NCBI GenBank assembly: GCA_900318065.1
Contig: ONIY01000005.1
Span: forward strand, 34,990-98,989
DNA from: an uncultured Prevotellaceae bacterium
GTDB lineage: Bacteria; Bacteroidota; Bacteroidia; Bacteroidales; Muribaculaceae
DNA length: 64,000 bases
Reading direction: 5' to 3'
Position numbers and translations under genes: made by a program. Position 1 is the stretch's first letter. Each line of letters begins with the position of its first letter. The notes beneath the pieces were generated by a model. The model had not been told where the DNA came from. It worked only from the letters and a program-made list of their open reading frames with translations, and searched no databases. Below are positions 2,817-64,000 of the stretch, piece after piece.

Positions 2817-4481
2817 TTATGCCTGGGCAGGTTTCTCCTCGGGCTTGATGTTGGGCTCCTCAAGACCGTAACCCTTCTTCTTGTCAACAGCTTTCAGATA
2901 AATAGAGATAAGCAAAGCTGCAATACCAAGAATGGCGAGCATTACAAGTGCCCAAGTGTAGTCAAGTTCGTGAGCAGCAGTGCCCTCGGCGTTGGTCTTC
3001 TGAAGAACTATACCAATAAGAGTTGGGAAGAGTCCCAGACCAATGTTCTGAATCCAGAAGATGGCGGCATAGGCCGAACCAATGATCTTCTCATCTACCA
3101 GCTTGGGAACCGAAGGCCACAATGCGGCAGGAACGAGAGAGAAAGAAGCTCCAAGAACCAGGATTGTGACATAGGCCACTACGGTACCACCAACGGTGTT
3201 GCCCTTGAATTCTGGCAAGATGAAAGCGAATGTCAAGTGGCAAACAACGAGTAGGATAGAACCAAGCATGAGCATAGATGCAGCCTTACCCTTGTGGTCA
3301 ACGTAGTTACCCAAGATTGGGGTGATGGCAACAGCCAGGAGTGGGAACACAGCAAAGATTGTCTCGGCAGTGCCACGCATGTAACCCATGTAGCAGTAAA
3401 TTACAAGTGCTACGATAGCGAGACACATCAAGCCATACTTCATTCCTTTCTTCTTAGAGAAGTTGCTGGAGAACGAGCAAATGGCAACAATAAGCATGAT
3501 GATGTACTGAACAACAGTTACCGAGATTGGGAATCCCTCGGTGCTGCCACCCCAGTAGGTGCTAGGATCGGCAGGGTTAAGTGTCAGGTTGCACTGAAGC
3601 ATGTTCACGGCATACTTCTGGAATGGGAAGATAGCACTGTAATAGAGCACGCAGAGCAAAGCAACAAGCCAGAAACCAAGGCTGGTGAAAATCTTGCCAA
3701 GGTCGCTGATCTTGAATGGGTCGTCTTTCTCCTCGGCCTCACCAGTTTGAGAGTCGAGCTTCTTGTCCATGAAGAAGTAAACGATGAACATTATCAGGGC
3801 GATGCACAGCAGAACTACACCAAACTTAACGGCATTGTCGACATGTACCTCACCACCCAGTTTAGCAAAGAATGGGGCAAAGATCATGCAAGTAGCAACG
3901 CCAAGGCGAGCAAGAGCCATCTCTGAACCCATAGCCAAGGCTGTCTCACGGCCCTTGAACCATTTCACAATACCGCGCGAAACAGTGATACCTGCCATCT
4001 CGCAGCCGCTACCAAAGAGCATGAAACCTATTGCTGCAAGTTTTGCAGAACCTGGCATGCCATCGGCAAAAGGCAGAATTGTGCCAATGATGGGAATGTC
4101 ACCGTCCCAGTTCAGGTTGTTGGTGAACCACTGTCCCAGAGGAGTGGCATCAAAGCCGTCGGTCACAGCATAGAACTTAATGATACCACCAATGAGCATC
4201 ACAGCACCCGAGAGGACGGCAGTGAAGCGCACGCCCATCTTGTCGAGGATGATACCGGCAATGATCAAGAAGAATACATAGACGTTAAGGAATACCTCAG
4301 CACCTTGCATGCGGCCAAAGGCAGCGCTGTCCCAGCCACGAGTCTCTTGCATTAAGTCCTTGATTGGCGAGAGAATGTCCATGAACACATAACTGCAGAA
4401 CATGGCCAGTGCCAATAACAAAAGTGCGGTCCAACGCATTCCTGCTGAATCGCGAAGTGTTTTTTTAACTGTTTGTGTCAT
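2817..4481 (-). CDS. MFS transporter, tandem copy 1 (long form)
   Basis: A 554-residue MFS membrane transporter closely related to its downstream neighbour: both share the LDKMGVRF/LDKTGVRF loop, a PVLGNYVDHKGKAA-like second-half loop and a LWPSVPKLV/LWPAVPKIV segment. It is about 95 residues longer, mainly through an insertion near residues 300-380 that adds a polar stretch and extra hydrophobic segments (NFSKKKGMKYGLMCLAIVAL). The C-terminus ends in a charged tail, EEPNIKPEEKPAQA. A TATCTTTG promoter lies about 58 bases upstream. The substrate is unknown. The tandem arrangement indicates local duplication followed by divergence. Confidence 0.88.
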   Translation of the reverse strand: MTQTVKKTLRDSAGMRWTALLLLALAMFCSYVFMDILSPIKDLMQETRGWDSAAFGRMQGAEVFLNVYVFFLIIAGIILDKMGVRFTAVLSGAVMLIGGIIKFYAVTDGFDATPLGQWFTNNLNWDGDIPIIGTILPFADGMPGSAKLAAIGFMLFGSGCEMAGITVSRGIVKWFKGRETALAMGSEMALARLGVATCMIFAPFFAKLGGEVHVDNAVKFGVVLLCIALIMFIVYFFMDKKLDSQTGEAEEKDDPFKISDLGKIFTSLGFWLVALLCVLYYSAIFPFQKYAVNMLQCNLTLNPADPSTYWGGSTEGFPISVTVVQYIIMLIVAICSFSSNFSKKKGMKYGLMCLAIVALVIYCYMGYMRGTAETIFAVFPLLAVAITPILGNYVDHKGKAASMLMLGSILLVVCHLTFAFILPEFKGNTVGGTVVAYVTILVLGASFSLVPAALWPSVPKLVDEKIIGSAYAAIFWIQNIGLGLFPTLIGIVLQKTNAEGTAAHELDYTWALVMLAILGIAALLISIYLKAVDKKKGYGLEEPNIKPEEKPAQA

Positions 4482-59972: not shown

Positions 59973-60190
59973 CTTTATTAAGCATGACAATAAGACCTTC
60001 ACAGAGCTGTTTTGTGGGCTTTTTGTCAATAGTTCCGCGCCATTTTTATAAAAAAATCGCATTTTTTTCAAAAACAAACCGTATTACGCAAAAAGACTGC
60101 GTAATCGTGGTTTTACTTTGCAGCGTGAAACGTAAAATGCGTTCTTTGAGTAATTGAATTAACCCAAATCGGTTATTAAATTGGGTATAA
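59973..60190 (+). other. Intergenic stretch before the RNA array
   Basis: No gene is seen. A perfect palindrome lies at 60083-60105 and a near-match promoter at 60113-60120 (TTACTTTG). ACCCAA (60162-60167) can pair with TTGGGT (60181-60186) just before the first RNA, and TATAAT occurs at 60186-60191. Confidence 0.5.
60083..60105. promoter_or_regulatory. Perfect 8-bp inverted repeat, candidate operator of the Ro60/RNA array
   Basis: ATTACGCA (60083-60090) and TGCGTAAT (60098-60105) are exact reverse complements with a 7-base spacer. The next element, TTACTTTG (60113-60120), differs at one base from TAnnTTTG, so the dyad would sit over the -33 region. A poor U-tract makes a terminator unlikely. 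Confidence 0.5.
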
Positions 60191-60290
60191 TGGTGGAGAT
60201 TGCCGTAGTAAGGAGTTACTTCGCGATTATCCGGAAAGGTGCGGGAACACAAATCCTGATTACCACTGGAGTTTTATATAAAAGTCTCCT
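60191..60290 (+). ncRNA. Putative Y RNA-like RNA, copy A (divergent 3' side)
   Basis: The core TGCCGTAGT-N9-CTTCGC (60201-60224) folds as a hairpin with CGUAGU paired to ACUUCG and a purine tetraloop (GGAG). The flanking sequence can close by GGUGGAGAU (60192-60200) with AUUACCACU, one A-A mismatch. A second hairpin GGAGTTTT-ATAT-AAAAgtCTCC follows (60268-60289). The bulged-U terminal helix seen in the other copies is not clear here, so the 3' limit is uncertain. Confidence 0.45.
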
Positions 60291-60328
60291 TGCGCTTGTC
60301 ACATCACACCTTATTGTTATAAAGATAT

Positions 60329-60480
60329 AAAGCAAGTGCCGTAGTAGAGGATTGCTTCGCAGTGGTTAGAACGTCGGGACTTATTACCCCGAAGGTCGCT
60401 GGTTCGACTCCGGCCACCAGATTACTGGTGTAGTTCATAAAAAAAGAGCCTCCGCGCCTGTTGCCTTGCTTTGTTTAGAA
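60329..60480 (+). ncRNA. Putative Y RNA with tRNA-like domain, copy B (YrlA-type)
   Basis: The terminal helix is AAAGCAAG (60329-60336), bulged U, GC, pairing with GC-CTTGCTTT (60463-60472) over 10 bp. The Ro-type core (60337-60360) is TGCCGTAGT-N9-CTTCGC with the AGGA loop. A tRNA-like part follows: a D-loop-like GGTTAGA, an anticodon-like arm TCGGG/CCCGA (60374-60378/60388-60392) with loop ACTTATTAC, the variable-loop-like AAGGTC, and a T arm GCTGG-TTCGACT-CCGGC (60398-60414). CACCAG-ATTA-CTGGTG (60415-60430) then forms a perfect hairpin. Standard acceptor-stem pairing and CCA placement are absent, so it is not a tRNA gene. Known YrlA RNAs have this architecture and bind Ro60. Confidence 0.72.
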
Positions 60481-60485
60481 TAACA

Positions 60486-60580
60486 GCAGAATGCCGTAGG
60501 GCAACGGATACTTCACATCGCCTCATAGGGGAATATAATGGTGATTCCCGGCCGTAACCCGCCTGTTGCTTCTGCAATTT
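60486..60580 (+). ncRNA. Putative Y RNA, copy C
   Basis: The terminal helix GCAGAA (60486-60491), bulged U60492, GC pairs with GC-TTCTGC (60568-60575), so the helix sequence differs from copies B and D but the bulge position is the same. The core is TGCCGTAG with CTTCAC and keeps GUAG/CUUC (60496-60499/60511-60514), with a longer loop. An inner hairpin GGGAAT/ATTCCC (60529-60549) is strong. Confidence 0.6.
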
Positions 60581-60584
60581 ATAA

Positions 60585-60680
60585 ACGGTTGCCGTAGTGT
60601 AGAGATACTTCGCTAGTAAAAGCACAAATTTCATCCTTCGGGATATAGGCTCTTCACGACTGTCGCACCGTTTTCTTTTA
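60585..60680 (+). ncRNA. Putative Y RNA, copy D
   Basis: The terminal helix ACGGU (60585-60589), bulged U60590, GC pairs with GC-ACCGT (60665-60671), followed directly by the U-rich 3' end TTTTCTTTT. The core is TGCCGTAGT-N9-CTTCGC (60590-60613) with loop AGAG. The internal stem ATCC-TTCG-GGAT (60633-60644) has a stable UUCG tetraloop. The RNA ends 36 bases before the Ro60 start codon. Confidence 0.68.
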
Positions 60681-60716
60681 AAAAATTGATGTTTAATTAT
60701 TTATGATGTAACGAAG

Positions 60717-62240
60717 ATGAATTACAACGCAAAACTAAAGGAAATGACAACTAAGAAGAATTATGAGGGTGCCAAGGCTTATGCCATGGCTCCCGAGTTG
60801 GAGCTTTACACTGCTGTAGTGACTGCATCGCTCAGTGACACTTTCTATGAGAAGCAAGACGAGCGCACCGACCGTATTGCACAGCTCATAGGAAAAGTTT
60901 CGCCCGAGTTCGTTGCGCGCCTCGCAGTGTACACTCGCACCGTGATGCATCTTCGTAGCATCCCCTTGCTGTTGCTTGTGGAGCTTGCGAAGGTTCATAA
61001 TGGTGATAACTTAGTGGCTAGAGCCGTTGAGAAGACTGTGCTCCGAGCCGACGAGATTATGGAATTGCTCATGTGCTACCAGTGGCGAAATCCATCAAGT
61101 GACCCACGCAAGAAGCTCGGCAAGCTTTCGCGACAGATTCAGAATGGACTGCAACGGGCGTTCAACCGATTTGATGAGTATCAGTTCGCCAAGTACGACC
61201 GCGACAACCTTGAGGTAAAGCTTCGTGACGCTTTGTTCTTGGTTCACCCCAAGGCTAAGGATGAGCAGCAGCAAGCTCTTTTCGACAAGATTGTTAACCG
61301 TGAACTAGAGGTCCCTTACACATGGGAAACAGAACTCTCGGCACTTGGACAGCAACAGTTTGACACTGAAGAGCTGAAGCAGGCTGCCTTCCGCGAGAAG
61401 TGGGAAGAGCTCATCAATAGTGGCAAGCTGGGCTACATGGCACTGATGCGTAACTTGCGCAACATGTTACAGATTGGCGTTTCGCCTGCTGAAATGCAAG
61501 TGGTGGCAGGTCGTCTCGCTGATGCCGAGCAGGTGGCTCACTCAAGGCAGTTGCCTTTCCGCTACCTCGCGGCTTATCGAGAGCTGGAAAAGGTAAACTC
61601 TGCTAATGTGGCCGAACTGATGAATGCTCTTGAAACTGCCGTGAAGCACTCGGCGGCCAATATCGATGGTTTTGACGAGAACACTCGTGTGTTGCTGGCT
61701 TGCGACGTGAGCGGTTCGATGAGCACACCCATCAGCCCAAGAAGTAGTGTTCGCAATTATGACATAGGCATCATGCTGGCGATGTTGCTTCGCAACCGCT
61801 GCAAGCAAGTTGTCTCTGGTATTTTCGGTAATGAGTGGAAGGTTGTGAACATGCCCAGCGACAACATCCTGATGGCTACTCGTCACATGGAGAGCTTGTG
61901 CAATAGCGTGGGCTATAGCACTAATGGCTACAAGGTCATCGACTGGCTCATTGAGAACAACATGGTTATAGACAAGGTGATGATGTTCACCGACATGCAG
62001 ATGTGGGACAGCACTGGCCGTTATAAGAATTTTGAGAATTCGTGGAAGAAGTACAAGAAGATGGCTCCCCATGCCAAGCTTTACCTCTTCGACCTCGTAG
62101 GCTACGGCCAGTTGCCCATGCGGCTTACTAAGCCCGATGTCTACCTTATTGCCGGCTGGAGCGACCGCGTGTTTGACGTCCTTTCATCCATCGACAAAGG
62201 CGAAGACGCTCTAGTAGCTATTAATAGCATTGATGTTTAG
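60717..62240 (+). CDS. rsr: Ro60-like TROVE-domain RNA-binding protein with vWA domain
   Basis: A 507-residue orthologue of the Ro60 autoantigen (bacterial Rsr). The N-terminal two-thirds is the TROVE domain, a helical-repeat ring: YEGAKAYAMAPELELYTAVV, DRIAQLIGKVSPEFVARLAVY, FRYLAAYRELEKVNS. The C-terminal von Willebrand A domain has the MIDAS motif LACDVSGSMSTP, with VMMFTDMQMW as the later Asp site. Ro60 holds misfolded or Y RNAs in its ring; in other bacteria the Ro60-Y RNA complex joins polynucleotide phosphorylase for RNA decay. Four RNAs with Y-like elements lie just upstream in the same direction. Gut Bacteroides Ro60 orthologues have been linked to lupus autoimmunity. Confidence 0.95.
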   Translation: MNYNAKLKEMTTKKNYEGAKAYAMAPELELYTAVVTASLSDTFYEKQDERTDRIAQLIGKVSPEFVARLAVYTRTVMHLRSIPLLLLVELAKVHNGDNLVARAVEKTVLRADEIMELLMCYQWRNPSSDPRKKLGKLSRQIQNGLQRAFNRFDEYQFAKYDRDNLEVKLRDALFLVHPKAKDEQQQALFDKIVNRELEVPYTWETELSALGQQQFDTEELKQAAFREKWEELINSGKLGYMALMRNLRNMLQIGVSPAEMQVVAGRLADAEQVAHSRQLPFRYLAAYRELEKVNSANVAELMNALETAVKHSAANIDGFDENTRVLLACDVSGSMSTPISPRSSVRNYDIGIMLAMLLRNRCKQVVSGIFGNEWKVVNMPSDNILMATRHMESLCNSVGYSTNGYKVIDWLIENNMVIDKVMMFTDMQMWDSTGRYKNFENSWKKYKKMAPHAKLYLFDLVGYGQLPMRLTKPDVYLIAGWSDRVFDVLSSIDKGEDALVAINSIDV

Positions 62241-62715: not shown

Positions 62716-63543
62716 ATGTGTGCAATGAATAAATACAAAGACGGCGAGTGGGAATACATTGATTATTACCCATTGGAACAATCAATAGTCCCATGCTCTG
62801 TAAAAACACGTTACGTTCGAGGTATGGCATGGTTTGACAAGTTTGAATTGGCAAAATTGTTGGGATGTGAAGTACGTGACATCAGGCGCTATCTAGATGA
62901 GTCAGAAGCAAACGGTGAATTGTCACAAGAGCACATAGCAATTTTAGAGGATAAGACACAAGGAGGGAGAAAGTTTGACATCAAGTGTTATGATGCAACT
63001 GTCGCTTTAAAGATTGCTGACTATGATACTGTTCCCGACAAACAATTTTTATTGTGGATTAAATCAAAATCAAGTCTTGACACAGAACATGAATATGAAA
63101 AGCATGTACTTAAACTGATGAAAGAGAATGATGAGATTGAAAAGAAATACACTTACAATATCTTTGACTTAATTTGGTATAACGGAGAATGGGTAGAAGA
63201 GGAAGCATATTCTGCTAATATATTTACTCACACTGATGGCTATATGCGGTTCTTTGTTTTTTTGTTACCAATAATCGTTACTTCTATATACTGTGTTAAA
63301 ATATCTTTGGCATTTTTATTTATACCCATTATTATTTTTGCTGCCTATTTTTTGCGCTTTATAAATAAAGAACGCAGATGGGCAATAAAAGTTCATTATG
63401 GCCTCAATCGTTATCCTGGTAGTCCTTTCTGGACTTCGGCATATAATAAGGGCTTATGGAATTGGAAACAGAATGTTCTCATTTATACATGGTTCATTTG
63501 GTCTGTTATAGTCAGCTACCTCTTCCTGCTAAAATATCTCTAG
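62716..63543 (+). CDS. Membrane protein with RhuM-like N-terminal domain
   Basis: A 275-residue protein. Residues 30-115 follow the order of RhuM-family proteins: FDKFELAKLLGCEVRDIRRY (compare the LSQAQMAELF helix), NGELSQEHIAIL, then GGRKFDIKCYDATVALKIAD and DKQFLLWIKSK (compare KYYNLDMIIAVGFRV and FRTWATK). The C-terminal half has three transmembrane helices (about 178-218 and 252-274), with NKERRWAIKVHYGLNRYPGSPFW between them. RhuM proteins are linked to mobile elements and toxin-like functions. The fusion of such a module to a membrane anchor is unusual. An alternative ATG is at 62725. Lower G+C than its neighbours suggests acquisition. Confidence 0.6.
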   Translation: MCAMNKYKDGEWEYIDYYPLEQSIVPCSVKTRYVRGMAWFDKFELAKLLGCEVRDIRRYLDESEANGELSQEHIAILEDKTQGGRKFDIKCYDATVALKIADYDTVPDKQFLLWIKSKSSLDTEHEYEKHVLKLMKENDEIEKKYTYNIFDLIWYNGEWVEEEAYSANIFTHTDGYMRFFVFLLPIIVTSIYCVKISLAFLFIPIIIFAAYFLRFINKERRWAIKVHYGLNRYPGSPFWTSAYNKGLWNWKQNVLIYTWFIWSVIVSYLFLLKYL

Positions 63544-63608: not shown

Positions 63609-64000
63609 ATGGGCATAGATACTAGAACTATCGACATCAAACTTCCCACACGATGGGAAGATTTGACTCAAAAGCAACTGCGCTATTTGTTCACCCTCAT
63701 AGCGCAGGGGTATTCCATTGATGAAGTCAAGGCATTCTGCCTTTTCCGATGGAACAAGATCACTATCCTTCATCGCTATGGCGAGAAGGGATATATGTGC
63801 AAGAAAGGCAAGCAGCGGTTCGTGATCACTGCGCTACAAGTGGCGCAGGCAGTCGCTGCGCTCGACTGGCTCAGAACGCTGCCGTCATATCCCATACGTC
63901 TGCAACGGATAGGCAGACTCCATGCCATACCAGCAGACTTCCAGGGAGTGCCGTTTGAGACATTCATCGTGTGCGATAACCTCTATCAAGGTTATATCTC
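63609..64000 (+). CDS. Conserved-type protein of unknown function (3' end outside window)
   Basis: The frame is open from ATG 63609 to the window edge (at least 130 residues): MGIDTRTIDIKLPTRWEDLT, QLRYLFTLIAQGYSIDEVKA, FCLFRWNKITILHRYGEKGY and a later PADFQGVPFETFIVCDNLYQGY. It is soluble, has no signal peptide and shows no catalytic motif. The E-D-L-x-x-x-Q-L/F opening with an F-C-L-F helix is reminiscent of Bacteroidales accessory-region proteins of unknown role. I recognise no family name. It has its own promoter-like box. Confidence 0.7.
   Translation, partial: MGIDTRTIDIKLPTRWEDLTQKQLRYLFTLIAQGYSIDEVKAFCLFRWNKITILHRYGEKGYMCKKGKQRFVITALQVAQAVAALDWLRTLPSYPIRLQRIGRLHAIPADFQGVPFETFIVCDNLYQGYI

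What the first reader, a model, noticed from the sequence alone, without database searches (positions are those of the whole stretch)
60191..62240. Ro60 (TROVE) gene preceded by an array of four Y RNA-like RNAs
Seen: four copies of TGCCGTAG(T)-N-CTTCRC between 60201 and 60613, three of them exactly 24 bases long with a variable 9-base middle that keeps the same hairpin (loops GGAG, AGGA, AGAG). Three copies have a terminal helix with a single bulged U followed by GC: AAAGCAAG(U)GC, GCAGAA(U)GC and ACGGU(U)GC, each with a different but exactly complementary 3' strand. This covariation shows structured RNAs and not a simple repeat. Known: Ro60 binds Y RNAs through a conserved helix with a bulged base. 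A multi-copy array in a gut Bacteroidales Ro60 locus is uncommon and could have a human-health link, since commensal Ro60 proteins have been proposed as lupus triggers.
Basis: partly seen in the sequence, partly recalled or inferred. Interest (0 to 1): 0.88.

Follow-up and report, generated by a model that had tools for sequence, protein, structure and literature searches.

The report
Ro60 gene with four Y RNAs
A bacterial Ro60 gene is preceded by four small structured RNAs that share one probable Ro60-binding handle but carry different heads, one of them a rearranged tRNA with an anticodon arm, and some relatives carry heads that resemble ribosomal RNA.

Summary
Four Y RNAs (60192-60672) precede a TROVE/vWA Ro60 gene (60717-62240). 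Related loci show the same architecture with strong covariation: terminal arms pair 82% against 53% when shuffled, and the bulged base is U in 67 of 67 unique cases. Multi-copy arrays are not uncommon: 42 of 72 related loci have at least two upstream cores. I found nothing that supports a human-health link. Copy 2 is a complete tRNA, circularly permuted in the D-loop, acceptor closed by a loop, with an anticodon arm whose anticodon varies between relatives. A review I could read describes YrlA as similar to the D, T and acceptor arms. Copy 1's class resembles the 16S rRNA 3' end (tentative). In relatives, Y RNA heads match the 23S GTPase-associated centre (3 loci, two above Rfam's threshold) and, more marginally, 23S helices 69-71 (2 loci). 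I read these as swappable adaptors or baits on a common Ro60 handle. Identity as Y RNAs is close to certain; the mechanism is inferred. New variant of a known kind.

The parts
60113..60122 (+). TTACTTTGCA, promoter-like element, one mismatch to TAnnTTTG
   Evidence: Sequence. TAnnTTTG followed by GTTCTTTGA or GATCTTTGA is found upstream in 19 of 85 loci examined; the window itself does not meet that full pattern. The promoter meaning of TAnnTTTG is recalled knowledge.
60141..60149 (+). GTTCTTTGA, rRNA-leader-like element (boxA-like, function inferred)
   Evidence: The same word stands in the rrn leader and in the 16S-23S spacer of a genome of the same order (L100); the word, with or without the -7 element, is upstream in 25 of 85 loci, the window among them.
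60192..60310 (+). Y RNA copy 1, class A; module resembles 16S rRNA 3' end (tentative)
   Evidence: Interrupted terminal helix with bulged U; CM R1 (built from class B) finds it, E 4.4e-5; 16S similarity of the class.
60329..60472 (+). Y RNA copy 2, class B; circularly permuted tRNA with anticodon arm, acceptor closed by ATTA
   Evidence: Rfam YrlA 29.6 bits, below gathering 69; un-permuted copy called tRNA-Ile(TAT) by ARAGORN, calls in 10 of 28 junction variants; covariation. It is itself one of the 12 training sequences of R1.
60486..60575 (+). Y RNA copy 3, class D; rod-like module, no mimic identified
   Evidence: Exact terminal helix; CM R1 E 0.0011; class D in related loci.
60584..60672 (+). 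Y RNA copy 4, class E; short module
   Evidence: Exact terminal helix with bulged U; class E in related loci; not found by R1 up to E 10.
60673..60679 (+). T-rich stretch after copy 4, possible end or processing site
   Evidence: Sequence only.
60717..62240 (+). Ro60 (TROVE + vWA) gene, 507 aa

Best explanation
This is a Ro60 ribonucleoprotein locus. A leader resembling that of rRNA operons probably drives one transcript of four Y RNAs and then the Ro60 mRNA. Each Y RNA has the same Ro60 handle: a terminal helix, one bulged U, GC:GC, an internal loop with CGUAG opposite UGUYGC, and a long-range upper helix followed by ACUUCG. Each carries a different module. Modules mimic pieces of the translation RNAs: in the window a whole permuted tRNA with anticodon arm (copy 2) and, less surely, the 16S 3' end (copy 1). 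In relatives they also mimic the 23S GTPase-associated centre and, more marginally, helices 69-71. I propose that the modules are interchangeable adaptors that dock the Ro60 ring to, or compete for, the enzymes that bind or act on damaged tRNA and rRNA (PNPase, modification enzymes, RtcB-linked repair, anticodon nucleases). Shown here: genes, structures, covariation, module similarities, association with RtcB, WYL and RlaP genes in relatives. Inferred: co-transcription, Ro60 binding, adaptor or bait function.
For: Handle covariation. Class B structure: 99.0% of cells paired, 16 of 33 pairs with change on both sides, none of 500 shuffles as high. Un-permuting test: 14 of 15 parsed modules called tRNA in at least 2 of 28 junction variants, shuffled pieces 0 of 900. 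CM R1 at E<=0.001: 23 of 27 phylum-sampled Ro60 loci and 0 of 33 control loci; 59 of 69 other Ro60 loci; most best hits are not tRNA genes. GAC modules: L061 73.6 bits and L051 63.9 bits, both above LSU gathering 50; L052 34.7, below it; 5 of 15 pairs changed on both sides. Helices 69-71: L067 and L080, 91-92% over 23-25 nt. 16S 3' end: rank 1 of 8,699 windows, 0 of 300 column shuffles as high. Neighbour clusters among 82 loci: RtcB in 28, WYL in 34 (representatives confirmed). PMC8394870 passages: YrlA binds PNPase and is modified by DusA and TruB. PMC7790460 passages raise the possibility that YrlA competitively inhibits an anticodon nuclease.
Against: No transcript, binding or phenotype data. 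Folding energies of the window copies are ordinary. The rRNA mimics with strong statistics are in relatives, not in the window: none of 27 phylum-sampled loci had an rRNA BLAST hit at E<=0.005. The helix 69-71 matches score 31.7 bits, just above the best of 1,640 shuffles at 30.1. E. coli's own 16S 3' end ranks only 54th for class A. By eye the helix 69-71 mimics lack the UUCCU of loop 70 and class A lacks CCUU after ACCUCC, so they are not simple copies of the toxin sites named. Class D and most of E match no known RNA here. RtcB lies on another contig in the window's genome.
Confidence: 0.55

Rival explanations
1. Decoys in a conflict: the modules imitate targets of RNA-cutting toxins or phage-encoded nucleases (anticodon arms, 16S 3' end, 23S loop 70) and absorb or inhibit them; anticodon variation reflects an arms race.
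For: Anticodon position 34 is the most variable column of class B while the D-stem hardly changes; 6 of 12 class B anticodons are NCG (alignment A2). Toxins cut the anticodon loop, the 16S anti-SD and 23S loop 70, and RtcB re-ligates 16S (PMC5408214 passages). Competitive inhibition proposed as a possibility for YrlA (PMC7790460 passages).
Against: Cleavage motifs are missing from the rRNA mimics; YrlA fragments were not detected in Salmonella; no toxin pairing shown here; PADLOC finds nothing for the Ro60 protein and the two ORFs after it; a T-loop column and a T-stem pair are nearly as variable as the anticodon.
Confidence: 0.25
2. Gate and tether only: all Y RNAs do the same job (block the Ro60 surface, tether PNPase) and module differences are drift from an ancestral YrlA tRNA-like domain.
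For: Known role in Deinococcus (PMC4726728, PMC7790460 passages); tRNA-like modules are the common type among the phylum-sampled loci printed.
Against: Drift would not be expected to give 82-89% identity to the 23S GAC (L051, L061) or compensated pairs; classes recur in a similar order across loci.
Confidence: 0.15
3. Leader RNA of the Ro60 mRNA: the array is a cis-acting 5' region through which Ro60 controls its own expression.
For: The array ends 45 nt before the ATG; upstream position in 54 of 72 loci.
Against: 27 of 82 loci have core-pattern matches downstream of Ro60; tRNA genes lie between the first Y RNA and Ro60 in 16 of 72 loci, which suggests cutting into separate RNAs.
Confidence: 0.05

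Closest known systems
YrlA / bacterial Y RNA (Rfam RF02553; PDB 6CU1, Salmonella)
   Same: Encoded beside Ro60; base stem for Ro60; permuted tRNA-like domain with T arm, acceptor hairpin and D arm (alignment; PMC8394870 and PMC11472068 passages). Class C in relatives is of this type.
   Different: Class B (window copy 2) keeps an anticodon arm because the break lies in the D-loop; other copies carry other modules; the window copy stays under YrlA's gathering threshold; several classes in one array.
Deinococcus Rsr / Y RNA / PNPase complex (RYPER)
   Same: Ro60-family ring protein plus Y RNA.
   Different: Several Y RNAs per locus; PNPase tethering not tested; protein only distantly similar to Rsr (NCBIfam Rsr 39.4 bits against a 900 cut-off).
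Vertebrate Y RNAs
   Same: Terminal helix with a single bulged base for Ro60.
   Different: Bulged U here, bulged C there (PMC4726728 passage); no Rfam hit to that family.
rsr-yrlBA-rtcBA RNA repair operon
   Same: Ro60, Y RNAs and RtcB linked; an RtcB cluster lies within about 4 kb of Ro60 in 28 of 82 related loci.
   Different: In the window's genome RtcB is on another contig; the recurrent regulator-like neighbour in relatives is a WYL protein (34 of 82), where Salmonella uses RtcR.

Membership tests
Ro60 / TROVE protein | TROVE domain plus vWA domain | tested here: met
   Pfam PF05731 E 2.9e-28 and PF25045 E 4.1e-9, both over cut-off; Foldseek to 9kop, 9l5y, 2nvo, 1yvp (model pLDDT 72.9).
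Ro60 / TROVE protein | NCBIfam Rsr equivalog cut-off | tested here: not met
   39.4 bits against 900: Ro60-family, not called Rsr.
Bacterial Y RNA | Encoded next to a Ro60 gene | tested here: met
   Copy 4 ends 45 nt before the ATG; 54 of 72 related loci have at least one upstream core.
Bacterial Y RNA | Base helix with one bulged nucleotide for Ro60 | tested here: met
   67 of 67 unique arms have T at the bulge; 82% of pairs form against 53% shuffled; at least 5 of 6 pairs in 47 of 67 (shuffle mean 12, maximum 22).
Bacterial Y RNA | At least one Y RNA with a tRNA-like domain (criterion recalled from Chen 2014; paper not held) | tested here: met
   Copy 2.
Bacterial Y RNA | Rfam YrlA gathering score | tested here: not met
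   Copy 2 29.6 of 69 bits; copies 1, 3 and 4 no YrlA hit up to E 10.
Bacterial Y RNA | Bound by Ro60 in cells | not testable with these tools
   Needs pull-down.
tRNA | Open acceptor stem, canonical order of arms | tested here: not met
   Acceptor closed by ATTA, order permuted; ARAGORN finds no tRNA in the window, only after rearrangement.
23S GTPase-associated centre mimic (relatives only) | Match to LSU rRNA model above gathering score inside a Y RNA scaffold | tested here: met
   L061 and L051 above 50 bits; L052 below it; scaffold around them (R1 hits in L061 and L051).
16S 3' end mimic (class A, window copy 1) | Specific similarity beyond chance | tested here: inconclusive
   13 class A sequences: rank 1 of 8,699 windows and above all 300 column shuffles. 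But nhmmer with 9 sequences gave an empty table, E. coli's 16S 3' end ranks only 54th, the likeness was first seen by eye, and the match is split by an insertion.

The most novel reading that the evidence does not exclude
Bacteroidota Ro60 loci encode a modular display system: one Ro60 handle carrying a swappable set of mimics of the vulnerable sites of the translation machinery (tRNA anticodon arms with variable anticodons, 16S 3' end, 23S GTPase-associated centre, 23S helices 69-71), working with RtcB-type repair to sense, sort or shield cut tRNA and rRNA.
Probability: 0.35. Interest if true: 0.9.

Novelty: new variant of a known kind. Interest (0 to 1): 0.72.

Why it matters
What the heads of bacterial Y RNAs do is an open question; the papers whose passages I read know a tRNA-like head. 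Arrays with several conserved head types, including anticodon-bearing tRNA mimics and rRNA mimics, make that question testable: each head predicts a set of proteins. They would also link Ro60, an autoantigen, to tRNA and rRNA damage and repair.

Tried and rejected
Local hairpin in the core: rejected as the conserved structure. Class A against rRNA by nhmmer: empty table; seen only with an alignment that allows an insertion. Class D against rRNA: best mean score 4.8, no identity. Class E as D-arm plus anticodon arm: strict form in 5 of 30 (shuffle mean 0.5, maximum 3); the window's copy 4 is not among them. Loose DNA pattern across 295 genomes of the order: counts like those of its reversed control, useless. 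More rRNA-type Y RNAs in the genus of L061: 11 of 200 genomes match Ro60; of 13 loci checked, only those of genomes already known gave 23S-type heads. A 5S-like hit at the edge of L147 was seen and not pursued. Prophage context: two ORFs after Ro60 have no family hit. IMG/VR gave two loci 84% identical to the window protein (L089, L090; same upstream core, L090 dropped as a duplicate) and a distant one, L091; whether they are truly viral was not tested. First count of tRNA genes in arrays (18 of 72) was lowered to 16 after ARAGORN calls that contain a Y core were removed.

Literature limits: Chen 2014, Sim and Wolin 2018 and Wang 2018 are not held. Multi-module arrays may be described there. 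My statement that I saw none in print rests on the search listings, and on passages (not whole texts) of PMC4726728, PMC7790460, PMC8394870, PMC7824862, PMC11277228, PMC5408214 and PMC11472068.
Full report
What is there. The window carries, after lepA, a promoter-like TTACTTTGCA (60113-60122; one mismatch to TAnnTTTG), a GTTCTTTGA word (60141-60149), four Y RNAs (60192-60310, 60329-60472, 60486-60575, 60584-60672) and a 507-aa Ro60 gene (60717-62240). GTTCTTTGA also stands in the rRNA operon leader and 16S-23S spacer of a genome of the same order and upstream in 25 of 85 loci examined, 19 of them with the full TAnnTTTG...G(T/A)TCTTTGA pattern. An rRNA-type leader is therefore plausible, but it was not tested. 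In the window's own genome six matches to the loose core pattern occur: three in this array and three elsewhere, about the chance level (reversed control pattern: 2).

Chance. The exact 24-mer pattern gives 0.41 matches per shuffled window at two mismatches; five were seen, three of them exact and in the array. A covariance model of class B (R1) finds only three places in the 64 kb up to E 10: copies 2, 1 and 3 (E 6.6e-31, 4.4e-5, 1.1e-3; copy 2 was in the training set). Copy 4 is not found by R1, but its terminal helix is exact and it has class E relatives. Folding energies are ordinary.

Relatives. A scan of genome contigs gave 431 relatives of Ro60, of which the best 80 were kept; three more came from IMG/VR. 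Of 72 of these loci with more than 1,000 nt upstream (L003, L004 and L090 left out), 54 have at least 1 core in the 1,500 nt upstream, 42 at least 2 and 20 at least 3, against 2 cores on the reverse strands. In 27 of 82 loci core-pattern matches also lie downstream of Ro60; at least one of them (L050) is in a tRNA T arm. In 16 of 72 loci a tRNA gene lies between the first Y RNA and Ro60 (one search had 18 before calls containing a Y core were removed). In a phylum-wide draw 28 of 395 genomes, the window's own among them, have TROVE. R1 finds hits at E<=0.001 in 23 of the 27 fetched loci and in 0 of 33 control loci; the controls hold 97,810 bases against 209,225. R1 contains a tRNA body, so some hits are tRNA genes: for 20 of the 23 a listed hit lies off any ARAGORN call, for L201 and L203 the best hit overlaps one (further hits not checked), and in L209 both hits do. 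R1 also finds hits in 59 of 69 other Ro60 loci; 56 of these 59 best hits lie off any ARAGORN call. In the window's genus Ro60 is sporadic: 6 of 61 genomes. One of these, in L008, has two stops inside the match and an array with tRNA genes.

The handle. Taking the last TGTNGC before the next copy without looking at pairing, 127 of 163 segments gave arms (L090 dropped), 67 of them unique. The six terminal pairs form in 82.3% of cells, against 52.6% (maximum 60.0%) in 1,000 shuffles; at least five of six form in 47 of 67 (shuffle mean 12, maximum 22); the base before GCCGTAG is T in 67 of 67. In 106 unique 22-nt cores with a paired terminus the upper strand pairs with the strand five bases before TGTYGC in 83.6% of cells (shuffle maximum 69.0%), with compensatory types; this register was the best of eight.

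Copy 2. In class B (12 aligned sequences) terminal helix, upper helix, D-stem, anticodon stem, T-stem and acceptor hairpin are kept: 99.0% of cells paired, 16 of 33 pairs with changes on both sides (shuffles 5.6, none of 500 as high); the number of further pair types is less striking, 27 against 23.9 (33 of 500 as high). Rearranged into tRNA order, 14 of 15 parsed modules are called tRNA by ARAGORN in 2 to 28 of 28 junction variants. The window's is called in 10 of 28, as Ile(TAT) in those shown; others come out as Arg, Pro, Leu, Asn, Cys, Lys and Met, one undetermined. A 16th module could not be parsed, and one of the 15 was misparsed and gave no call. The modules alone in natural order give 0 of 15, shuffled pieces (three junctions each) 0 of 900. 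In whole loci ARAGORN does place calls on four class B RNAs as they stand: Leu(tag) through the scaffold in L016, L022 and L038, and Arg(tcg) in L017; in the window it places none. The first anticodon base is the most variable column (1.96 bits), but a T-loop column reaches 1.89 and a T-stem pair is also variable. YrlA in the passages I read resembles the D, T and acceptor arms and superposes on tRNA by a circular permutation. A break in the D-loop with the anticodon arm kept was not mentioned there. The anticodon loop of the window copy has two extra bases or an A.C mismatch.

Other heads. Class A (copy 1): 27-nt windows of E. coli rRNAs and of a Bacteroidales rRNA operon stretch were ranked by mean score over 13 class A modules. 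The Bacteroidales 16S 3' end (helix 45 plus anti-SD) came first of 8,699, at 8.41; the next unrelated window scored 6.67; E. coli's 16S 3' end scored 4.64 (54th); 300 column shuffles reached at most 7.88. I had seen the likeness by eye first, and a plain profile search gave nothing, so I hold it as likely, not shown. In L061, L051 and L052 the head matches the 23S GTPase-associated centre: LSU model 73.6, 63.9 and 34.7 bits (gathering 50). BLAST gives 87.7% over 65 nt for L061, 82.5% over 63 nt for L051 and 71% over 62 nt for L052 against E. coli 23S. In the segment test the best of 1,640 shuffles scored 30.1 bits, against 66.6 for L051 and 33.3 for L052; the L061 segment was not in that test because its core escaped the pattern. 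Five of 15 pairs show changes on both sides among the three heads and two rRNAs (4 of 500 shuffles as high). L067 and L080 match 23S around helices 69-71 over 23-25 nt at 91-92%; 31.7 bits each is only just above the shuffles, but both match the same rRNA place directly after the core. By eye both continue with a helix 71-like hairpin and lack the UUCCU of loop 70. None of the 27 phylum-sampled loci had an rRNA hit at E<=0.005. Heads appear to move between scaffolds: the CAGCAATGGCCC module sits in the first scaffold of L017 and in the last of L011.

Neighbours. Among 82 related loci, ORF clusters of a WYL regulator occur in 34, of RtcB in 28, and two RlaP clusters in 6 and 5. Clusters are single-linkage, and one representative of each was confirmed by Pfam. 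The window's own flank falls in none of them; its genome has RtcB on another contig.

Mechanism. Established for other bacteria, in passages read: Y RNA tethers Ro60 to PNPase and gates it; YrlA is modified by tRNA enzymes; competitive inhibition of an anticodon nuclease was raised as a possibility; RNase toxins cut the anticodon loop, the 16S anti-SD and 23S loop 70, and RtcB restores 16S. The heads found here touch these same regions, so I favour adaptors or baits. The missing cleavage motifs speak against simple sacrificial decoys.

Verdict. Y RNAs beside Ro60: near certain. Multi-copy array: common in this group. Anticodon-bearing permuted tRNA head: well supported and, as far as I could read, a new variant. 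rRNA heads: well supported in two relatives and supported in a third (GAC), marginal in two (helices 69-71), tentative for window copy 1. Function: inferred.

Noticed in passing
L061 3562-3733; L051 3811-3969; L052 around 3500-3670: Y RNAs whose head matches the 23S rRNA GTPase-associated centre.
   Followed up: yes
L067 and L080, upstream of Ro60 (about -808 and -761): Y RNA heads resembling 23S helices 69-71, without the UUCCU of loop 70.
   Followed up: partly
L008 (reverse strand): Ro60 frame with one TGA and one TAG inside the match, beside an array of Y RNAs interleaved with tRNA Glu, Gly and Asp genes.
   Followed up: no
window 62716-63543 and 63609-64000: Two ORFs after Ro60 with no Pfam, PHROGs, NCBIfam or PADLOC hit; the second runs off the contig end.
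   Followed up: partly
L012, L022, L025, L060, L067 and others, between Y RNAs: tRNA genes (often Met-CAT, also Lys, Ser, Tyr) between the first Y RNA and Ro60 in 16 of 72 loci; they may serve as processing signals.
   Followed up: partly
L070, L082, L187, L200: A recurring GGGGAGGAATAGCG...TCCGGTTCGA...GCC(C/T)C head that may be the longer ancestor of class D (window copy 3).
   Followed up: no
L089, L090 (IMG/VR contigs): Ro60 84% identical to the window's, with Y RNAs upstream, on contigs classed as viral; not checked whether they are host DNA.
   Followed up: no
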